Below are positions 4,474-11,691 of a DNA stretch of 64,000 bases, piece by piece; positions within the stretch are counted from its first letter, which is position 1; the number at the start of each line of letters is the position of its first letter. This stretch comes from Kineosporia sp. NBRC 101731. Lineage in GTDB: Bacteria; Actinomycetota; Actinomycetes; Actinomycetales; Kineosporiaceae. Position numbers and translations under genes: made by a program. Below the pieces are notes generated by a model. That model made no database searches. It saw nothing but the letters and a program-made list of their open reading frames with translations, and was not told the DNA's origin. The DNA is taken from the NCBI RefSeq assembly GCF_030269305.1, contig NZ_BSTC01000016.1, forward strand, positions 105,453 to 169,452, read 5' to 3'.

Positions 4474-4520
4474 GGTCCGCCTTTCGTGTCTGAGGTGGCC
4501 GGGGAGGTCCCCAGCGATGC

Positions 4521-4542
4521 GTACATCCGGTACCGGATGTAC
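4521..4542. promoter_or_regulatory. 22-bp perfect palindrome upstream of the Smr gene
   Basis: The sequence reads GTACATCCGGT followed directly by its exact reverse complement. A second small palindrome (GTGTACAC) follows a few bases later. The position 48-69 bp upstream of the Smr start codon suits an operator for a dimeric repressor. A cruciform or terminator role is also possible. No regulator can be assigned. Confidence 0.5.
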
Positions 4543-4599
4543 CAGGTGTACACATCGTGCGCCGGCCGTTCCGAATGTTGTATCTCATGGGGTCGGGTT

Positions 4600-4690
4600 C
4601 ATCGGTGGCGGAGAAGCCGCTCCCGTCACCCGAGAGGTGTTGTGTGAGAATGAGCCTGACGTGACACGAAGGCCCCGGGACCAGGTGGGC
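4600..4690 (+). repeat. Repeat copy B: degenerate duplicate of the permease 3' end
   Basis: This intergenic copy matches the end of the permease gene, including the bases encoding [22 protein letters not shown], but with frame-breaking changes and no open reading frame. It lies about 545 bp downstream of copy A in the same orientation and looks like a decayed tandem duplication. Confidence 0.8.
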
Positions 4691-5076
4691 CGAGACGGCG
4701 GTCTCCGGCGGGGCGGGGCCCGGTGGCGACGGCGTGGTCATCCCGGTCGCAACCCGACACCGGTCCCGTTGCCGGCCGCTCCTGGCATACTCTGTGGATC
4801 GGGCCGCTCTGATGACGTATCGGGCGGGGCCGGGTAGTCCGGGCAGTTGTTGCGCCCCGTTGCCCTGAGCCACCAAAGCCGGAGGCCGGTTTCCGGGCGA
4901 CCGCAAATTCCTCGCCAGAGAAGGTTTCTGAGGACAATGCGGAGTGGTCTGCGTCACGTCTTTCCAACATCAACTTCGTCTCTGGCGGGACGAGAACTCT
5001 GCTGCCGGTCGTCCTACCCGGCCACGTCGTCAGGGACCGACGCCTTCGGGGCCGGTCCGTACGTTCGAGGAGTCTC
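4691..5076. other. Gene-free leader region of the PYP operon
   Basis: This stretch holds no credible gene. It must contain the promoter of the light-sensor operon, but I could not pick out a convincing -35/-10 pair. It is visibly less GC-rich than its flanks around 4900-5000. Confidence 0.4.
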
Positions 5077-5505
5077 ATGACCACTGGACCAGTGACGGTC
5101 CCACCGACCGAGGAGCTCTCCACACAGGTCCGCCGGATTCTGTCGGCGGAGGAGTTCCGGACCGCGCTCGAGCGCGACCTTCTCGACGGTGTCGACCCAG
5201 AAATCGCAGCTCGGGTGTTCGCCAAGGCTGATGGACTTCGCCGGGACGTGCTCGGGCAGGTCGACAACATTCCCATGGAGGAAGAGCTCCAGTGGACGAT
5301 CGCCCTGAGCTACATGGAGCTGAAGGCGCAGTGGCTCCAGCGTCAGGTGCGCGTCTGTTACGAGGAGATGATGACCGGTTCCTGCAGCAAGGAGGTGGCT
5401 CTGGAGGCCTCGGCGGCGTCCTACCTCATCAGTCTGATCGAGCCGCTCCTCGATGCCGAGCACCTGCGTCGGATCCGGGAACTCTTCGTCTCGCAGGTCG
5501 ATTGA
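5077..5505 (+). CDS. Uncharacterised helical protein, first gene of the PYP operon
   Basis: I do not recognise this 142-residue protein. It starts at ATG after a GAGGAG ribosome site. It is rich in charged and aliphatic residues with no signal peptide or membrane segment and should be soluble and mostly helical (for example ELQWTIALSYMELKAQWLQR and EASAASYLISLIEPLLDAEH). Two Cys residues sit near its middle (RVCYEEMMTGSCSKE). It lies 49 bp before the next gene on the same strand and appears to be the operon's promoter-proximal gene. A role in PYP signalling as partner or adaptor is inferred only from position. Confidence 0.75.
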   Translation: MTTGPVTVPPTEELSTQVRRILSAEEFRTALERDLLDGVDPEIAARVFAKADGLRRDVLGQVDNIPMEEELQWTIALSYMELKAQWLQRQVRVCYEEMMTGSCSKEVALEASAASYLISLIEPLLDAEHLRRIRELFVSQVD

Positions 5506-5554
5506 GTCGTTCCCGTGGTGCGGCCGGGCAGAGTGCCCTGAGAGGTGAAGAAGT

Positions 5555-5956
5555 ATGACCGTGAACAGCCCGCTAGATCTGGTTCCCGACCAGATGCCAC
5601 CGTCGGAGTACGGCGGCAGGAGGGACCACGATGACAGCCTGGTGCAGCAGCTGACCGCTCTCTACCACGAGAAGCAGGAGCTCCACCATGCTTTGGGAGT
5701 CTCCAGCGCCAGCGAAGTGATCGATCTGTTCCACGCGGCACAGCGCCAGGACATGCTCAAGAGCCTGGGGGAGCAGCTCTTCTCCCTGTACGGGGAGCGC
5801 GAAGAGCTGGAGAAGGGCCTCGGGACTTCGGCATCGAACGAGATCGTCGATCTCGTCACCAGTTTGCGTGCCACCATCCGTTCCCTCGTCGACGATTCCC
5901 GTCGGCGTCTTGCCTATGAGACAACCGTCCTCGACAGCTACGAAAGGTACCTGTGA
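5555..5956 (+). CDS. Coiled-coil protein with an internal duplication, in the PYP operon
   Basis: The 133-residue soluble protein contains two copies of one motif, residues 29-59 and 70-100, offset by 41. The shared pattern is SLxxQLxxLYxExxEL, three residues, LG, then a short Ser/Ala-rich stretch and E-(V/I)-(V/I)-D-L. Each unit should form a helix, a turn at the LG and a second helix, so the whole may be a coiled-coil dimer like a signalling linker. Its stop lies one base before the PYP start, which points to translational coupling. The function is unknown; a PYP partner or signalling relay is inferred from position. Confidence 0.8.
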   Translation: MTVNSPLDLVPDQMPPSEYGGRRDHDDSLVQQLTALYHEKQELHHALGVSSASEVIDLFHAAQRQDMLKSLGEQLFSLYGEREELEKGLGTSASNEIVDLVTSLRATIRSLVDDSRRRLAYETTVLDSYERYL

Positions 5957-5957
5957 C

Positions 5958-6380
5958 ATGAGCGATCAGTTCATCGACACCATGTGGGCCACCGCCACCA
6001 AGGCCGCGGCCCAGGGCGGGGCCTTCGCCTCCCCGGGCGAACTGTCCGCCCTGACGACGATGTCCGCCTCACAGGCCGACACGCTGCCCTACGGTGCGGT
6101 CAGGGTCGACGACAAGGGCGCGATCAGCGTCTACAACCGGTACGAGAGCGAACTGGGGGGAATCGCGCCGGCCAACGCGATCGGTAAGAACTTCTTCACC
6201 GATATCGCCCCCTGCACCAACAACAAGGTCTTCCGTGGGTGTTTTCTCAAGGCGGTTGAACAGGGCAGTGCGGACTGCCTTTTCAACTACACGTTCACCT
6301 ACAAGATGCGTCCCACCGAGGTGAAGGTGCACATGCACCGGGCCAACGGGGTCAACTGGATGCTCATCGCCAAGAAGTAG
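5958..6380 (+). CDS. pyp: Photoactive yellow protein (PAS-fold blue-light receptor)
   Basis: The 140-residue product aligns with Halorhodospira PYP over its last 100 residues (IGKNFFTDIAPCT, then YTFTYKMRPTEVKVHM). Cys86 in APCT corresponds to the Cys69 that carries p-coumarate by thioester. Tyr59 and Glu63 match Tyr42 and Glu46, which hydrogen-bond the chromophore, and Met117 matches Met100. The positions of Thr50 and Arg52 are changed to Gly67 and Ile69, so spectrum and photocycle speed may differ. The N-terminal cap is about 17 residues longer. ATG at 5958 follows an AAAGG site one base after the previous stop. Genes for chromophore supply follow directly. Confidence 0.95.
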   Translation: MSDQFIDTMWATATKAAAQGGAFASPGELSALTTMSASQADTLPYGAVRVDDKGAISVYNRYESELGGIAPANAIGKNFFTDIAPCTNNKVFRGCFLKAVEQGSADCLFNYTFTYKMRPTEVKVHMHRANGVNWMLIAKK

Positions 6381-6428
6381 GTGCCACGGCGTCGATGGGG
6401 CCGTACCGGCTCATCGGCGCCGTCACCG

Positions 6429-6450
6429 TTTGCCCCGGGTTTGCCCCGGG
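6429..6450 (+). repeat. 11-bp tandem repeat in the pyp-pcl gap
   Basis: TTTGCCCCGGG occurs twice in direct succession in the 92-bp gap between the PYP gene and the ligase gene. The GC-rich units can pair into a short hairpin, which could lower read-through so that the sensor is made in excess over the enzymes. That role is inference. Confidence 0.55.
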
Positions 6451-6472
6451 GCGGCGAACCACGTGAGGGGAC

Positions 6473-8065
6473 ATGGACGAGACGGGCCTGCCGGTCGACG
6501 CCACCGGCGAGCGTGAATTGAGTGCCCGGCTGCGCCAGAGACTGCGGGGCTCCAGCGTCCCGGTCATTCTCGACGGCGAACGCACCCTGCCCGCAGCCAG
6601 TCTGTGGGTCAGTGCCCGGCGGTTGGTCGCCGGTCTACGCGCCGCCGGTCTGGAGCGCAACGACCGGGTACTGGTCTGCACGAACGACGACCTGGTGCTG
6701 GCCGCCGCCGTGGTTGCCGGGTTGACCGGCGGAATCACCATGGCTCTGCTGCGCCCGCCGCCCGGCGGGATCACGGCCGACCGGATGCGGGCCGGAGCCG
6801 AGGCCGTAGATGCCCGGCTGGTGGTGCATGCCTCCTCGGACCAGATCGAACCGTCCGGCCACGAGGGCATGCTCGCTCCCGCCTGGATGGTGTCCGCGAG
6901 TCTGGAGGGACTGGCCCCGGTCCCGAAGTTGCGGCGGGCGTGCCGACGGGCCGACCCCGACGGCCCGGGGATCGCCCTGCTGCTGCACACCTCCGGTTCC
7001 ACCGGGCGTCCCCACTGGGTGGCGCTGACCCCCGGGAATCTGACCGCCGTCCTGAACTCCCACCTGACCGTCCTTTTCGGGGACGCCTGGGATCCCCAGG
7101 ACCCGGGCGAGCGGCCGGCCGGAGTCATGGCCAGTGTGCTGCCGTGGCACCATGCCTTCGGAGTCGTCCTGGATCTGCTCGTCGGTCTCACCGCGGCGCA
7201 GGTCGTGCTCCGGGACCGGGCCGCGGGCGCCGACCCCGAGCGTCTGGCAGCCCTGTTGCAGCAGGCGGGGGAGGGAGCCTGGCTGAACAGCGTCCCGCTG
7301 ACCCTCCGCCGGTTCCTGCGGGCCGCGCCGAACGAGGCGCCAGCCCGGCTGGCGGCGCTGGGAGGAGGGTTGGTCGGCGGTGCTTCCGTCGACGCCTCTC
7401 TGGGACAGGAACTTTCACGCACCCGGTTACGGCCTGGATACGGGCTGACCGAGGCCGGCCCCGGAGTGTGCCTGGGCGATCCGGGTGACTTCGCGGTCGG
7501 GGTGATCGGCCGCCCGGTCGGCTGTCACGTGGAGATCGTGGACGGGCGGCTGGCGGTGCGTGGCCCCAATGTCGGGCCCGGGGTGCTGGACGCCACGGGC
7601 CTCCTGGTGCGGCGACCGGAAGATCGGCTGATCACCGAAGACACGGTACGTGATCATGGGCAACGCTTAGTGTTTACTGGCCGCGTGGACGACACCGTCA
7701 AGCTTCCCAACGGCTGCTGGGCCAATCTCACCGACATCGACAGCGAGGTCACGGCCGGGACCGGGGTGGATTGCGCCTCCCTGTCCCGGCCGGACTCGGG
7801 TCTGACCCTGGTGGTTGATACCGCCCCGGCCGCGGTGGAGGCATGGGTGGAACGCTCTCCCCGCCCCTGGACGGCGCACGTCCGGGCGGTGGCGGCCGTG
7901 CCCGCCGACCACTGGCCCCGATCACCCAAGGGCGAGATCCAGCGGCGCCACCTCGCCGAGCATCTGCTCGGGAACGACTCCCGCCCGGTCCTGGACGATC
8001 TGGACGATCCGTCCACGACACAGGGCGGTGAGGTCGCCCGGCCGGAGCCGAGCAGTTCACGGTGA
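6473..8065 (+). CDS. pcl: 4-coumarate:CoA ligase-like adenylating enzyme for the PYP chromophore
   Basis: The 530-residue product belongs to the acyl-adenylate-forming family. It has the phosphate loop LLHTSGSTGRP, the A5 motif GYGLTEAGPG, the A8 hinge FTGRVDDTVKLPNG and the C-terminal SPKGEIQRR with the catalytic Lys. In characterised PYP systems this enzyme activates p-coumaric acid to its CoA thioester, from which PYP is loaded. Neighbours on both sides, PYP upstream and the ammonia-lyase overlapping by 4 nt downstream, support that assignment. The sequence is divergent from plant 4CL, so another aryl acid as substrate cannot be excluded. Confidence 0.88.
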   Translation: MDETGLPVDATGERELSARLRQRLRGSSVPVILDGERTLPAASLWVSARRLVAGLRAAGLERNDRVLVCTNDDLVLAAAVVAGLTGGITMALLRPPPGGITADRMRAGAEAVDARLVVHASSDQIEPSGHEGMLAPAWMVSASLEGLAPVPKLRRACRRADPDGPGIALLLHTSGSTGRPHWVALTPGNLTAVLNSHLTVLFGDAWDPQDPGERPAGVMASVLPWHHAFGVVLDLLVGLTAAQVVLRDRAAGADPERLAALLQQAGEGAWLNSVPLTLRRFLRAAPNEAPARLAALGGGLVGGASVDASLGQELSRTRLRPGYGLTEAGPGVCLGDPGDFAVGVIGRPVGCHVEIVDGRLAVRGPNVGPGVLDATGLLVRRPEDRLITEDTVRDHGQRLVFTGRVDDTVKLPNGCWANLTDIDSEVTAGTGVDCASLSRPDSGLTLVVDTAPAAVEAWVERSPRPWTAHVRAVAAVPADHWPRSPKGEIQRRHLAEHLLGNDSRPVLDDLDDPSTTQGGEVARPEPSSSR

Positions 8066-9627
8066 CCGCCACGGTGATGCTTCCGCTGAACCTGACCGCC
8101 GAGCGACTTGAGTCCCTCGCCGGCACTGCCCGGGTCGAGGTGGACCTGTATCCGGAGGCGGAACAACGCATGACGGCGGCCCGCAACGGGTTGCTCGAGC
8201 TCCTGGCCGCCGGCACCCCCGTCTACGGCGCCACCACCGGATTCGGCCCGCATGTGCGATACCCGGCGGACGGTGACCCTTCGGCCCAGGGGGCTTCGCT
8301 GATCGCGCACCTGGCCTCCGGCACCGGTGATCCGGTCGAGCCGGAGCTGGTGCGGGCCACGATTCTGGTGCGCGCCAACTCGCTGGCCCGAGGGCATTCG
8401 GGGATGCGAGCAGAGACCCTCCGGGCCCTGCTGGGCCTGGTGCGTGCCGGAGTGGTCCCTACCGTCCCGAGGTTCGGCAGTGTGGGTGCCAGCGGGGACC
8501 TGATCCCGTTGGCACACATCGCCCGGGCGCTCACCGGCGAAGGGCGGGTCCTCGCCGACGGTCCCGGTTCACGCCCGGCCGCCGAGGCGCTCGCCGAGGC
8601 CGGCCTGTCCCGGGTCGGTCTGGACGCCCGGGAAGCCCTGGCCCTGGTGAACGGGACCAGCTACTCGACGGCGATGGCAGCGATGGCTCTGGCCCGCACC
8701 CGTCGGCTCCTGCATCGGGCGGTCGATCTGACCGGATGGTTGTACGCCAGTCTGGGTGCCCAGGAGCAGGCGCTGGATCCGAGGCTGCACGCGGTCCGCG
8801 GACAGTCGGCGCAGCAGCGGGCCGCCGCTGCCGTACGGGAAGCGGTCGCCGCCGCACTCCCCGGTGTGCCTTCTCCGGCCGGCACCAGTACTGGCGACGA
8901 GGAGAGCGGGGTCGGGGAAGGCGCCGGCCGGACGAGCCTGCCGGAGCGACCGCTTCAGGAGGTTTACTCGTTGCGGTGTGCGCCACAGGTCCTGGGTCCG
9001 ACGTTCGAACTGACCGGCCTGGCGGGGCGCATGATCGAGGACGAATTGGCCGGGGTCAGCGACAATCCGGTGCTGGTCGATGCCACCGCGGCTGGTCTCG
9101 GGTGGGAAGCGCTGCACGGCGGTAACTTCCACGCTGCTGCGACAGCGACGGCGGCCGATCTGCTGACCGGGGCCCTGACCCAGGCAGCGGTGCTGGCCGA
9201 ACGGCAGATCGACGTCCTGATGTGCCCGGCCACGTCGAGGGCCCCGCTGCTGCTGGCCAGCCGGCCGGGAGCGCAGGCCGGTCTGGCCGGTGCCCAGCTC
9301 ACCGCTTCGGCCGTGCTGGCCGCCGCCCGCCACGCCTGCGGATGGGCGTCGACGATGAGTGTGCCGACGAACGCCGGTAACCAGGACATCGTGCCCATGG
9401 CACCGCTGGCGGCGCGGACATCACTCGAGCAGAGTGACCGCTTGGCCAGCATTCTGGCAGTCCTGGCCATCTCCCTGGTGCAGTTCCAGCATCTGCGGGC
9501 CCGAGGGCTGGCTCCGGGCCGGGCCGCCCTGCCCCCGGCCTGGATGCCGTGGGTGGAAGGGTTTGACCAGGATGTCGAAACCCACTCGATGATCGAGATC
9601 GTCCGGGAAGGGATCCTCGCTCCGTGA
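8062..9627 (+). CDS. tal: Tyrosine ammonia-lyase (MIO family), p-coumarate producer
   Basis: The 521-residue product carries the Ala143-Ser144-Gly145 triad (VGASGDLIPL) that cyclises to the MIO electrophile, plus TTGFG, NGTSYS, YSLRCAPQVLGP and NAGNQDIV motifs of the HAL/PAL/TAL family. The selectivity loop SLIAHLASG has His83-Leu84, the pair seen in tyrosine-preferring enzymes, so L-tyrosine to p-coumarate is the likely reaction. It starts with GTG overlapping the ligase stop by 4 nt. An unusual low-complexity insert (about residues 270-297, rich in Gly, Glu and Ser) precedes YSLRC. A histidine ammonia-lyase is the alternative, but the operon argues against it. Confidence 0.9.
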   Translation: MTATVMLPLNLTAERLESLAGTARVEVDLYPEAEQRMTAARNGLLELLAAGTPVYGATTGFGPHVRYPADGDPSAQGASLIAHLASGTGDPVEPELVRATILVRANSLARGHSGMRAETLRALLGLVRAGVVPTVPRFGSVGASGDLIPLAHIARALTGEGRVLADGPGSRPAAEALAEAGLSRVGLDAREALALVNGTSYSTAMAAMALARTRRLLHRAVDLTGWLYASLGAQEQALDPRLHAVRGQSAQQRAAAAVREAVAAALPGVPSPAGTSTGDEESGVGEGAGRTSLPERPLQEVYSLRCAPQVLGPTFELTGLAGRMIEDELAGVSDNPVLVDATAAGLGWEALHGGNFHAAATATAADLLTGALTQAAVLAERQIDVLMCPATSRAPLLLASRPGAQAGLAGAQLTASAVLAAARHACGWASTMSVPTNAGNQDIVPMAPLAARTSLEQSDRLASILAVLAISLVQFQHLRARGLAPGRAALPPAWMPWVEGFDQDVETHSMIEIVREGILAP

Positions 9628-9644
9628 ACGGGTGAAGCCGGATG

Positions 9645-9666
9645 CCGGGTGACCCGGGTCACCCGG
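9645..9666. terminator. Palindrome between convergent TAL and MCP genes
   Basis: A 22-bp perfect palindrome, CCGGGTGACCC and its reverse complement, spans the 31-bp gap and the last codons of the chemoreceptor gene. It is suited to act as a bidirectional terminator, although no U-tract follows. Confidence 0.55.
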
Positions 9667-11335
9667 TCACCTGGAGGCTGTCCTGGTCGGACCGGTCCTC
9701 CCGGGGCGTCTCGATGGTGAACTGGGTGATCATCAGCTGCTGTAGTTCGCTGCCGAGGATTTCCAGGCTGCTGGCGGACGCCCGGGCCCGGGCCACCGCG
9801 CCCGCGGTGAGATCGGAGGTGGCTATGACGCAGTCGGACAGCATCCCGATCATCGAGGAGGTTCCGACCGCTCCCTGGGCGGACATCGAGATGTCGGCGA
9901 TGATCGACCTCTGACTGTCCACCGCCCCGGCCACCAGCCCCTGCTTGGAGTTGATCTGGGTGACGGTTTCCGTGATCTGCTCGATCGAGCCGGCCGCCGA
10001 TGACACATCAGCCTGGATCGCCGCCACCCGGGTAGCGATGTCGCTGGTGGCGCTGCGGGTTTCCTCGGCCAGCGTCTTCACCTCGTTGGCGACGACGGCG
10101 AAGCCCTTGCCGAACTCGCCGGCCCGGGCGGCCTCGATGGTCGCGTTGAGGGCCAGCAGGTTGGTCTGCTGGGCCACCGAGTTGATCAGTTCGATCACGT
10201 TGCCGATCTCTTCGGACGAAGACCCCAGGCGCTGGATCTTCTCCTGGACCACGGCGACACCACCGGTGGCCTCGGTCGCGGTCCGGGCGGCCTCGTCGGC
10301 GTTGCGGGAGATGTCGGCGATCGATCCGTTCATCTGCTCGGCCGCGGCGGCCACGGCCGCCACGATTCCGGCCACTTCGGAAGAGGCAGCCGTGACGGCC
10401 TGGGACTGGGCGGACGACTCGGCGGCCCCCTCCGCGACCTCGTCACTGATCCGGCTCAGATGGGCCCCGTGCTCGGTGACCTGGCCGGCGGAGGCGTTGA
10501 TCGTGCGCACGACGTCGTAGAGTTTGTCCAGGGCGCCGTCCAGATCGGCTCCCATCCGGCCAATTTCGTCCCGAGTGGTCATCTCGGTGCGATGGGTCAG
10601 GTCTCCCTGGGCGAGAGCGTGCGTCACGGTCTGGACCCGGCGGGCGGAACGACGCACCATCCGGGCGACCAGCAGAGCCATGGTGAAGGCGGCGAGTTCG
10701 GTCACCAGCCAGAGGGCGATCACCTCCCAGCGATCGCGGCGGTGATCGGCCAGCAGCTGGTTCTGATCGGCGGCGGCCTGGCTGACCGTGGCGGCCCGGA
10801 CGGTCGTGAGGCCGGTCAGCAGATTCTGCATCTGAGTCTCGCCCTCGCCGGTCAACAGCGAGAGAGCAGCTTCCGGGTCGGTGGTCAGCGCCGGCACCAG
10901 GGTGGAATCTCGCCAGGTGGTGTACGCGGTCCATAATTCGCTCAAAGTTGCTGAAGATGAGGAGCTTCCGTCAGAAGCAGCGTAGCTTGCGAGGGTTCGG
11001 GCAGCCGACTCGTCGAGCGAGCGGGCCTGGGCGATGGCCTGGGTCTGTGCGGCGCCGCTGGTTGCCTGGGCGAGAAGCAGGTCCGCCCGGGACTGAAGGA
11101 CGTCGGCGCGCAGGTCGTCCACCGAGGTGAGGGGGACGATGTAACTGCGGCTGATCTGGGGAGCCGTGTCAGCCAGAAGCATGAGGGTCATCAGCACCGC
11201 GCCGCCACTGAAGATGGCGGCGACGACACGGACGCTGATGATTTTCTGGAACAGCGACAAGTTGGACAGGGGTTCCAGAAAACGCTGCGTCACTCCGAAC
11301 CGGGGTGGCACCGTCTCTGCCTGAACGCTGACCAT
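9659..11335 (-). CDS. Methyl-accepting chemotaxis protein
   Basis: ATG at 11335 with GGGAGA upstream gives 558 residues. The order is a cytoplasmic tail, TM1 (about 32-54), an extracellular helical ligand domain of the four-helix-bundle type (55-200), TM2 (about 203-225), HAMP ([20 protein letters not shown], then [11 protein letters not shown]), and the signalling domain with hairpin tip [19 protein letters not shown]. It should couple through CheW to CheA and control flagellar rotation. No che or flagellar genes lie nearby. It converges on the PYP operon 31 bp away, so a link to light sensing is possible, but co-transcription is not. Confidence 0.93.
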
Positions 11336-11691
11336 CGAGGGTCTCCCAGAGTTGAAGTTCTTCACCACGACACCAGCGACCCAGGCGATGGTCGCTGCGA
11401 TGCCCGGTGAAGGTACCCGGGCCATCCGTGGTGATCTTCGACCACCGTCCTGCGCAGTTGAGTCCGGACGATGGGCGAGCTTTCGGCCTTCGGGGGGTAG
11501 ATCTCGCTCGACCCCGCAACCGCACTTTGCTGTCGGTCGACCGAGCCACCGCGACTCGTCCGTGGCCCGGGTCACATTCTGATGGGCTCGCTGAGAAACC
11601 CCCGGGTAACGACCACTGTCGCTCCTCGTAACTATCGAGCGATAGCTAATAGACCCACACCGTCCAGCCGTCCCGAGAAAGCACAGGCCCC
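11336..11691. other. Divergent promoter region of the MCP and ABC-importer genes
   Basis: These 356 bases carry no gene. Transcription of the chemoreceptor (leftward) and the importer operon (rightward) must start here. The only clear signal is the CTATCG palindrome, listed separately. I saw no match to a FliA-type promoter. Confidence 0.45.
11632..11645. promoter_or_regulatory. 14-bp palindromic operator candidate for the importer operon
   Basis: CTATCG-AG-CGATAG lies 47-60 bp before the start codon of the binding-protein gene. A 14-bp inverted repeat of this type is a plausible site for a dimeric HTH repressor. The TetR gene at the other end of the locus is the obvious candidate, but that pairing is inferred. 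I found no second copy near the MFS or TetR genes. Confidence 0.5.

What the first reader, a model, noticed from the sequence alone, without database searches (positions are those of the whole stretch)
5077..9627. Self-sufficient photoactive yellow protein operon in an actinobacterium
Seen: PYP with conserved Cys86, Tyr59 and Glu63, followed by a CoA-ligase-like gene and an ammonia-lyase with the Ala-Ser-Gly MIO triad, all on one strand with 1-bp to 92-bp gaps or 4-nt overlaps. Known: in Halorhodospira and Rhodobacter the chromophore of PYP is p-coumarate, made by TAL and activated by a 4CL-like enzyme. PYP is mainly described from proteobacteria. Inference: this actinobacterium makes a complete holo-PYP, and two uncharacterised genes in front belong to the same light-signalling unit.
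Basis: partly seen in the sequence, partly recalled or inferred. Interest (0 to 1): 0.93.

Follow-up and report, generated by a model that had tools for sequence, protein, structure and literature searches.

The report
Blue-light sensor with two overlooked partners
This bacterium carries a gene of the PYP blue-light-sensor family beside two enzymes predicted to make and attach its yellow pigment and two small unnamed proteins; relatives of those two sit next to this sensor in at least eleven other bacterial phyla and are in some cases fused to it or to chemotaxis-type kinases, so they likely carry its signal, a link that has been missing.

Summary
In detail: PYP (Tyr59, Glu63, Cys86), a ligase-like gene and a TAL-like gene with the Ala-Ser-Gly triad lie on one strand behind two unnamed genes, with gaps of 49, 1 and 92 nt and a 4-nt overlap. 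PYP in actinobacteria and PYP-ligase-TAL operons are already in print. The new part is the two front genes, here called g1 (142 aa, predicted helical) and g2 (133 aa, coiled-coil-like). Neither matches a curated family. Of 79 PYP loci fetched, 60 carry relatives of g1 and/or g2, in 11 named phyla. In 54 of 55 g2 loci, g2 shares an ORF with PYP or lies within 200 nt of it. Of 21 long ORFs with a g1 domain, 20 are CheA-type or CheA-like. The branch that holds Halorhodospira PYP lacks both near PYP (0 of 16 loci). In the window, a chemoreceptor gene lies in the same 7.1-kb segment, which one close relative lacks. Best reading: g2 and g1 likely relay PYP's light signal to CheA-type signalling. That they are dedicated PYP partners is strongly supported; signal flow, light response and holo-PYP formation are untested.

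The parts
5077..5505 (+). g1: 142-aa helical protein; its domain is fused to CheA-type and CheA-like proteins in relatives
   Evidence: no curated family
5555..5956 (+). g2: 133-aa coiled-coil-like protein with two copies of an LYxE(K/R)xxL...LGxS repeat; next to or in one ORF with PYP in relatives
   Evidence: no curated family
5958..6380 (+). photoactive yellow protein, 140 aa, Cys86 as predicted chromophore site
6473..8065 (+). AMP-binding enzyme, predicted p-coumarate ligase, with Lys-Gly (486-487) in the A10 region
8062..9627 (+). aromatic amino acid lyase, predicted tyrosine ammonia-lyase (MIO triad 143-145, His83)
9659..11575 (-). methyl-accepting chemotaxis protein (HAMP, MCPsignal, weak 4HB sensor), convergent with the lyase gene; possible output partner; the true start may lie inside this ORF
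   Evidence: lies in the segment absent from G402
4494..11572 (.). segment of 7,079 bp that holds the operon and the MCP gene; in a close same-genus genome (G402) the two flanks are 306 bp apart
   Evidence: left anchor is a single 264-bp match

Best explanation
Window 4494-11572 holds a PYP gene, two genes for enzymes predicted to make and activate its p-coumarate, and two partner genes conserved beside PYP across phyla, coiled-coil-like g2 and predicted-helical g1, which likely relay the light signal from PYP to CheA-type (chemotaxis-like) signalling. Shown: the gene set; that g1 and g2 families sit with PYP in many phyla; that in some relatives g2 shares an ORF with PYP and g1 is fused to CheA-type or CheA-like proteins; that the window genome has CheA and CheW-domain genes elsewhere and an MCP gene in the same segment. 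Inferred: blue light partly unfolds PYP, which changes its contact with the g2 rod; g1 passes this to a CheA kinase, in the window through one of the host's own CheA proteins and perhaps the neighbouring MCP, so that light would bias motility. Where g1 is fused to a CheA-like part with a degenerate ATP site, that protein is likely a scaffold rather than a kinase.
For: (a) Profiles seeded with 12 g1 and 2 g2 sequences of the window's own group and iterated on 9,915 ORFs of 79 PYP loci hit 45 and 59 ORFs at E<=1e-4 (28 and 40 with the seed profile alone) and none at E<=1 in reversed, shuffled or 664 background ORFs. (b) By locus: g1 39, g2 55, both 34, either 60 of 79; g2 in one ORF with a PYP match in 11, within 200 nt upstream in 34, downstream in 9, far in 1. 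(c) Of 21 g1 ORFs of 300 aa or more, 7 match the window genome's own CheA (E 1.2e-35 or better) and 13 carry a CheA-like part. (d) In 47 PYP genomes both families occur in 31, neither in 11, one alone in 5; Fisher 1.4e-6, kinship ignored. (e) In 395 other genomes of the window's phylum g1 has one marginal match and g2 none. (f) L039, L060, L087 and L150 have an MCP gene beside the module. (g) The MCP gene and the operon lie in one segment absent from G402. (h) PMC9664959 reports clade-B PYPs often beside chemoreceptors (section read).
Against: The window's g1 stands alone, and no CheW-domain gene lies on its contig. MCP genes are not commoner in loci with the module: 6 of 60 against 2 of 19. 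Distal g1 genes in two Pfam-checked Kapaibacteria/Ignavibacteria loci sit by protease and beta-CASP genes, and one in L046's genome by a pullulanase gene, not by Che genes. Three of 47 genomes have g2 but no g1 and two the reverse. Four of the 13 CheA-like fusions (L041, L055, L076, L090) are called so only by likeness to the others; the three scanned gave no Pfam hit. The 79 loci are the best of 233 matches to a window-led alignment. No contact, light response or phosphotransfer was tested.
Confidence: 0.6

Rival explanations
1. g1 and g2 are maturation or holding factors: they help load p-coumarate onto PYP or keep apo-PYP folded, and do not carry the signal.
For: g1 often lies among the chromophore genes, as ligase-g1-lyase in L047, L062 and L082, and beside the lyase in L149; all four of g1, g2, ligase and lyase occur in 14 of 79 loci.
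Against: g1 is fused to CheA-type proteins. The 16 loci of the Halorhodospira branch lack g1 and g2 near PYP, and holo-PYP of H. halophila has been made with the two enzymes alone (title of a reference seen; section text).
Confidence: 0.15
2. g1, g2 and PYP form a Che-like pathway that controls something other than motility, such as gene expression, c-di-GMP or HDOD-linked output.
For: HDOD genes sit beside g1 in L092 and L103; the literature links PYP to biofilm and gene expression too (PMC12826048, sections read).
Against: MCP genes beside the module in the window and in L039, L060, L087 and L150; H. halophila PYP drives phototaxis (PMC12826048).
Confidence: 0.18
3. An ordinary self-sufficient PYP operon that was picked up by transfer, with two passenger genes.
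For: 1 of 13 family genomes has PYP; the segment is missing in G402 and GC of g1, g2 and PYP is 0.61-0.63 against 0.70 for the window from 17 kb on.
Against: The same two families recur with PYP in 60 of 79 loci of 11 named phyla and share ORFs with PYP or CheA-type parts. Transfer itself does not speak against the main reading.
Confidence: 0.04

Closest known systems
Halorhodospira halophila pyp-pCL-TAL operon (described in PMC12826048, section read)
   Same: PYP followed by ligase and lyase genes in the same order on one strand
   Different: three genes only; PYPs of that branch lack g1 and g2 (0 of 16 loci); the window's ligase has Lys-Gly where the classical-type ligases in L092 and L109 have Gly-Lys
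Clade-B PYPs of Leptospira and Salinibacter (PMC9664959, sections 5-7 read)
   Same: likely the same half of the family; often beside a chemoreceptor
   Different: the sections read name no g1 or g2; its figure shows unnamed hypothetical genes that might be these
MCP-PYP fusion proteins (PMC12826048, section 6 read)
   Same: PYP coupled to chemotaxis machinery
   Different: direct fusion to an MCP; the one such locus in my set, L099, has no g1 or g2 within its genome
Ppr of Rhodocista centenaria, which binds CheW (PMC2993699, abstract and outline seen)
   Same: a PYP protein tied to Che proteins
   Different: one large fusion with a bilin-binding domain and a histidine kinase; the abstract names no small partner proteins
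CheA kinase of bacterial chemotaxis
   Same: g1 is fused to full CheA-type (7) or CheA-like (13) proteins in PYP loci
   Different: g1 is no known CheA domain by Pfam, NCBIfam or Foldseek, and the window's g1 is a separate protein

Membership tests
PYP family (Cys69-bearing homologs, as defined in PMC9664959) | Cys69 equivalent, with Tyr42 and Glu46 | tested here: met
   Cys86, Tyr59 and Glu63
PYP family (Cys69-bearing homologs, as defined in PMC9664959) | binds p-coumarate and has a photocycle | not testable with these tools
   needs expression and spectra
NCBIfam equivalog TIGR02373 | score over the curated cut-off of 143.05 bits | tested here: not met
   122.4 bits; not filed under this model. 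PMC9664959 says it finds only about 20% of PYPs
Tyrosine ammonia-lyase | MIO-forming Ala-Ser-Gly | tested here: met
   residues 143-145; Lyase_aromatic E 1.8e-117
Tyrosine ammonia-lyase | His at the selectivity position of Rhodobacter TAL (role recalled) | tested here: met
   His83 aligned with the His of 2o6y that is Phe in 2o78
Tyrosine ammonia-lyase | turns tyrosine into p-coumarate | not testable with these tools
   enzyme assay needed; no curated NCBIfam cut-off is reached
Canonical 4-coumarate:CoA ligase | AMP-binding fold | tested here: met
   PF00501 E 7.5e-33
Canonical 4-coumarate:CoA ligase | A10 motif with Gly-Lys (the role of this lysine is recalled) | tested here: not met
   Lys-Gly in the window and 11 of 16 aligned relatives; hence filed only as ligase-like
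CheA-type chemosensory component (for g1) | g1 domain fused to CheA parts | tested here: inconclusive
   shown by fusion in relatives; the window's g1 stands alone and has no CheA or CheW domain

The most novel reading that the evidence does not exclude
g2 and g1 are the long-missing output of one half of the PYP family: a dedicated coiled-coil and helical adapter pair that makes PYP a soluble light receptor of CheA arrays, found from actinobacteria to Bdellovibrionota and overlooked because the founding PYP, that of Halorhodospira, belongs to the half that lacks it.
Probability: 0.55. Interest if true: 0.9.

Novelty: new variant of a known kind. Interest (0 to 1): 0.82.

Why it matters
PYP is a model photoreceptor, yet PMC12826048 (December 2025) still calls its signal transduction chain an important gap. 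Two unnamed families that accompany PYP in 60 of 79 fetched loci, joined to PYP on one side and to CheA-type proteins on the other, give a concrete chain that can be tested. Cultured hosts are at hand by record title: Sphaerotilus natans (L092), Salinivenus iranica and lutea (L080, L086), Longimonas halophila (L096) and two planctomycetes (L040, L061). If true, it would also be a candidate part for coupling blue light to chemotaxis kinases.

Tried and rejected

Actinobacterial kin: in 396 genomes of the phylum the PYP model matched 48 at E<=0.001, none over its cut-off. The window's genome scored 122 bits; the next had 45 bits with a stop in frame (G065, L005, only described); the rest had 31 bits or less and were taken as other PAS domains without single checks. 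Plasmids gave 10 weak PYP matches, none in a genus that I know as actinobacterial. The plasmid search with a neighbouring ABC transporter, meant to place the organism, had Streptomyces at 47% as best row and is not decisive. Promoter and terminator scan: 1 and 2 sites, expected 0.3 and 2.2.

Limits: the 79 loci are the best of 233 confirmed matches to an alignment led by the window's PYP, so 60 of 79 is not a share of all PYPs. Of the 79 loci 48 were handed to the whole-genome search and 47 were held. The phylum controls scored only the best 9 to 11 candidates of each genome. Distances are between stop-to-stop ORFs and are lower bounds; 'same ORF' includes long repeat proteins with a PYP-like stretch. 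The tree is a quick one on 140 columns, 35 of its 80 inner branches are open, and its root is the midpoint. The empty site rests on one genome, G402; left of its 264-bp anchor the next 2.9 kb of the window does not align with G402 either, so the place is variable. Supplements of the two PYP papers could not be read; the search listing counts 'coiled-coil' once in PMC12826048, but the passage search found none in its main text. Novelty rests on searches and on the sections read.
Full report
What is there. PYP has Tyr59, Glu63 and Cys86, aligned with Tyr42, Glu46 and Cys69 of solved PYPs, and Gly67 and Ile69 at the places of Thr50 and Arg52. It matches TIGR02373 at E 1.1e-35 but below its cut-off. 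The lyase has the MIO triad and His83, aligned with the His of 2o6y that is Phe in 2o78. The ligase-like protein is an AMP-binding enzyme.

What was known. Two PYP surveys, of which I read abstracts, passages and named sections, already report PYP in actinobacteria (fewer than five genomes in PMC9664959; 'Actinomycetes' in PMC12826048) and PYP operons with ligase and TAL genes. PMC12826048 counts ligase genes in 42 and TAL genes in 7 of its 113 operons and names the signal chain as a gap. Its main text holds no 'CheW', 'coiled-coil' or 'hypothetical'. PMC9664959 draws unnamed hypothetical genes in one figure, seen by its legend only, and reports chemoreceptors beside clade-B PYPs. The listings showed no paper on such partners. 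Supplements could not be read.

The two front genes are families of PYP partners. A scan of genome contigs (84,980 species by its description) with an alignment of 32 PYPs gave 233 confirmed matches, of which 79 loci were kept. Profiles seeded with the window's g1 or g2 and their nearest metagenome kin (12 and 2 sequences) and iterated on the 9,915 ORFs of these loci found 45 g1 and 59 g2 ORFs at E<=1e-4. The seed profiles alone found 28 and 40. None was found at E<=1 in reversed or shuffled copies or in 664 ORFs of other loci. By locus: g1 39, g2 55, both 34, either 60 of 79; g1, g2, ligase and lyase together 14. g2 shares an ORF with a PYP match in 11 loci, lies within 200 nt upstream in 34, downstream in 9, and farther away in 1. 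In L047, L062 and L082 (Spirochaetota) the order is g2-PYP-ligase-g1-lyase on one strand. The 60 loci belong to 11 named phyla by the labels: Planctomycetota, Spirochaetota, Bacteroidota, Rhodothermota, Ignavibacteriota, Bdellovibrionota, Myxococcota, Gemmatimonadota, Armatimonadota, Verrucomicrobiota and Pseudomonadota; a few are unplaced.

g1 points to CheA. Of 21 g1-bearing ORFs of at least 300 aa, seven (L045, L052, L059, L069, L093, L095, L111) match the window genome's own CheA at E 1.2e-35 or better, with g1 at the C-terminus; Pfam shows HATPase and Hpt in the two scanned, Hpt of L095 below cut-off. Thirteen others have g1 ahead of a CheA-like P4-P5 part. A profile of 12 of these hits CheA in the PDB at 7.7e-15, an AF2 model of the L092 protein (pLDDT 83.6) hits CheA at 1.3e-16, and Pfam sees CheW in the five seed proteins, in two of them below cut-off. 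Four of the thirteen (L041, L055, L076, L090) are placed only by likeness to the others. The last of the 21, L103, is cut by its contig end. Against CheA the second kind keeps the DDGxG box but not the RN..DHG stretch, so it may be a scaffold.

Genome-wide pattern. In 47 whole genomes that hold a PYP locus, g1 was found in 33 and g2 in 34: both in 31, g2 alone in 3 (L038, L061, L071), g1 alone in 2 (L045, whose PYP ORF carries g2 by the other profile, and L054), neither in 11 (Fisher 1.4e-6, kinship ignored). The 11 are gamma- or alphaproteobacteria by title. Three loci of the main branch lack the module nearby: the genome of L054 has g1, that of L075 has both, and L073 comes from the same bin as L091, which has both. 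In 395 other genomes of the window's phylum g1 gave one marginal match (7e-4) and g2 none; only the best candidates of each genome were scored.

Two halves of PYP. A quick tree of 83 PYPs parts, on a branch of length 2.22 with SH-aLRT 100, a set with H. halophila PYP (16 loci, none with g1 or g2 nearby) from the rest (64 rows of known state, window included, 61 with g1 or g2). The module thus marks the second half, which by its members likely includes clade B of PMC9664959. Two Spirochaetota loci (L104, L112) fall in the first half.

In the window. PYP and g2 were found in 1 of 13 genomes of the family, the window's own; five of the others are of the same genus. In G402 a 264-bp match at 92% ends at window 4493 and a 5.1-kb match at 94% begins at 11573, with 306 bp between them where the window has 7,079 bp. 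That segment holds the operon and the neighbouring MCP gene, so these were likely gained or lost together. Left of the anchor the next 2.9 kb of the window does not align, and G401 and G403 keep the right flank only, so the place is variable. GC is 0.63, 0.61 and 0.62 for g1, g2 and PYP, 0.72 for ligase and lyase, and 0.70 for the window from 17 kb on. The genome has two CheA proteins and further CheW-domain ORFs, all on other contigs.

Mechanism. Shown: co-location, fusion and co-occurrence. Inferred: PYP signals through g2 and g1 to CheA; the order is read from which fusions occur. Against it stand the lack of any CheA gene near the window's g1, MCP genes that are no commoner near the module than without it (6 of 60 against 2 of 19), distal g1 genes beside protease, beta-CASP and pullulanase genes in the three loci of this kind whose neighbours were scanned, and the five genomes with one family only. 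Maturation of PYP is the main rival for the function of g1 and g2; a Che-like output other than motility is the main rival for what is controlled.

Noticed in passing
window 6473-8065; L049, L075, L074, L103, L036, L086, L038, L082, L047, L050, L062: The window's PYP ligase and 11 of 16 aligned relatives have Lys-Gly in the A10 region where L037, L092 and L109 have Gly-Lys (L039 has Lys-Gly-Lys, L046 is not resolved), as if the catalytic lysine (recalled) had moved by two residues.
   Followed up: partly
L046 10357-13323 and L090 12318-15437: Ligase and lyase matches lie in one long ORF, so both chromophore enzymes may be one protein (Pfam-checked for L046 only).
   Followed up: partly
L079 5279-9076, L088 6694-9576, L089 6884-9766, L044 7143-9833, L091 7373-9739, L096 7321-9741: In Bacteroidota and Rhodothermota the g2 repeat is spread over ORFs of 789 to 1,266 aa just upstream of PYP, with g1 on the other strand.
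   Followed up: partly
L092 10874-11917, L103 6863-8014: An HDOD-domain gene lies beside a g1 gene or g1-ligase pair and ahead of a second g1 gene in two unrelated loci.
   Followed up: no
L150 5444-8289 (G422): A second PYP locus in the genome of L051, with MCP, g2, PYP and g1 matches in a row on one strand and lyase and ligase matches near by.
   Followed up: partly
L005 (G065, same phylum): A short stretch that resembles PYP of the Halorhodospira kind and is interrupted by a stop codon, perhaps a remnant.
   Followed up: partly
L144 2509-6557 (G414): In a Bacteriovoracia bin a g1-CheA-like gene lies with lyase and ligase genes away from the fetched PYP contig.
   Followed up: partly
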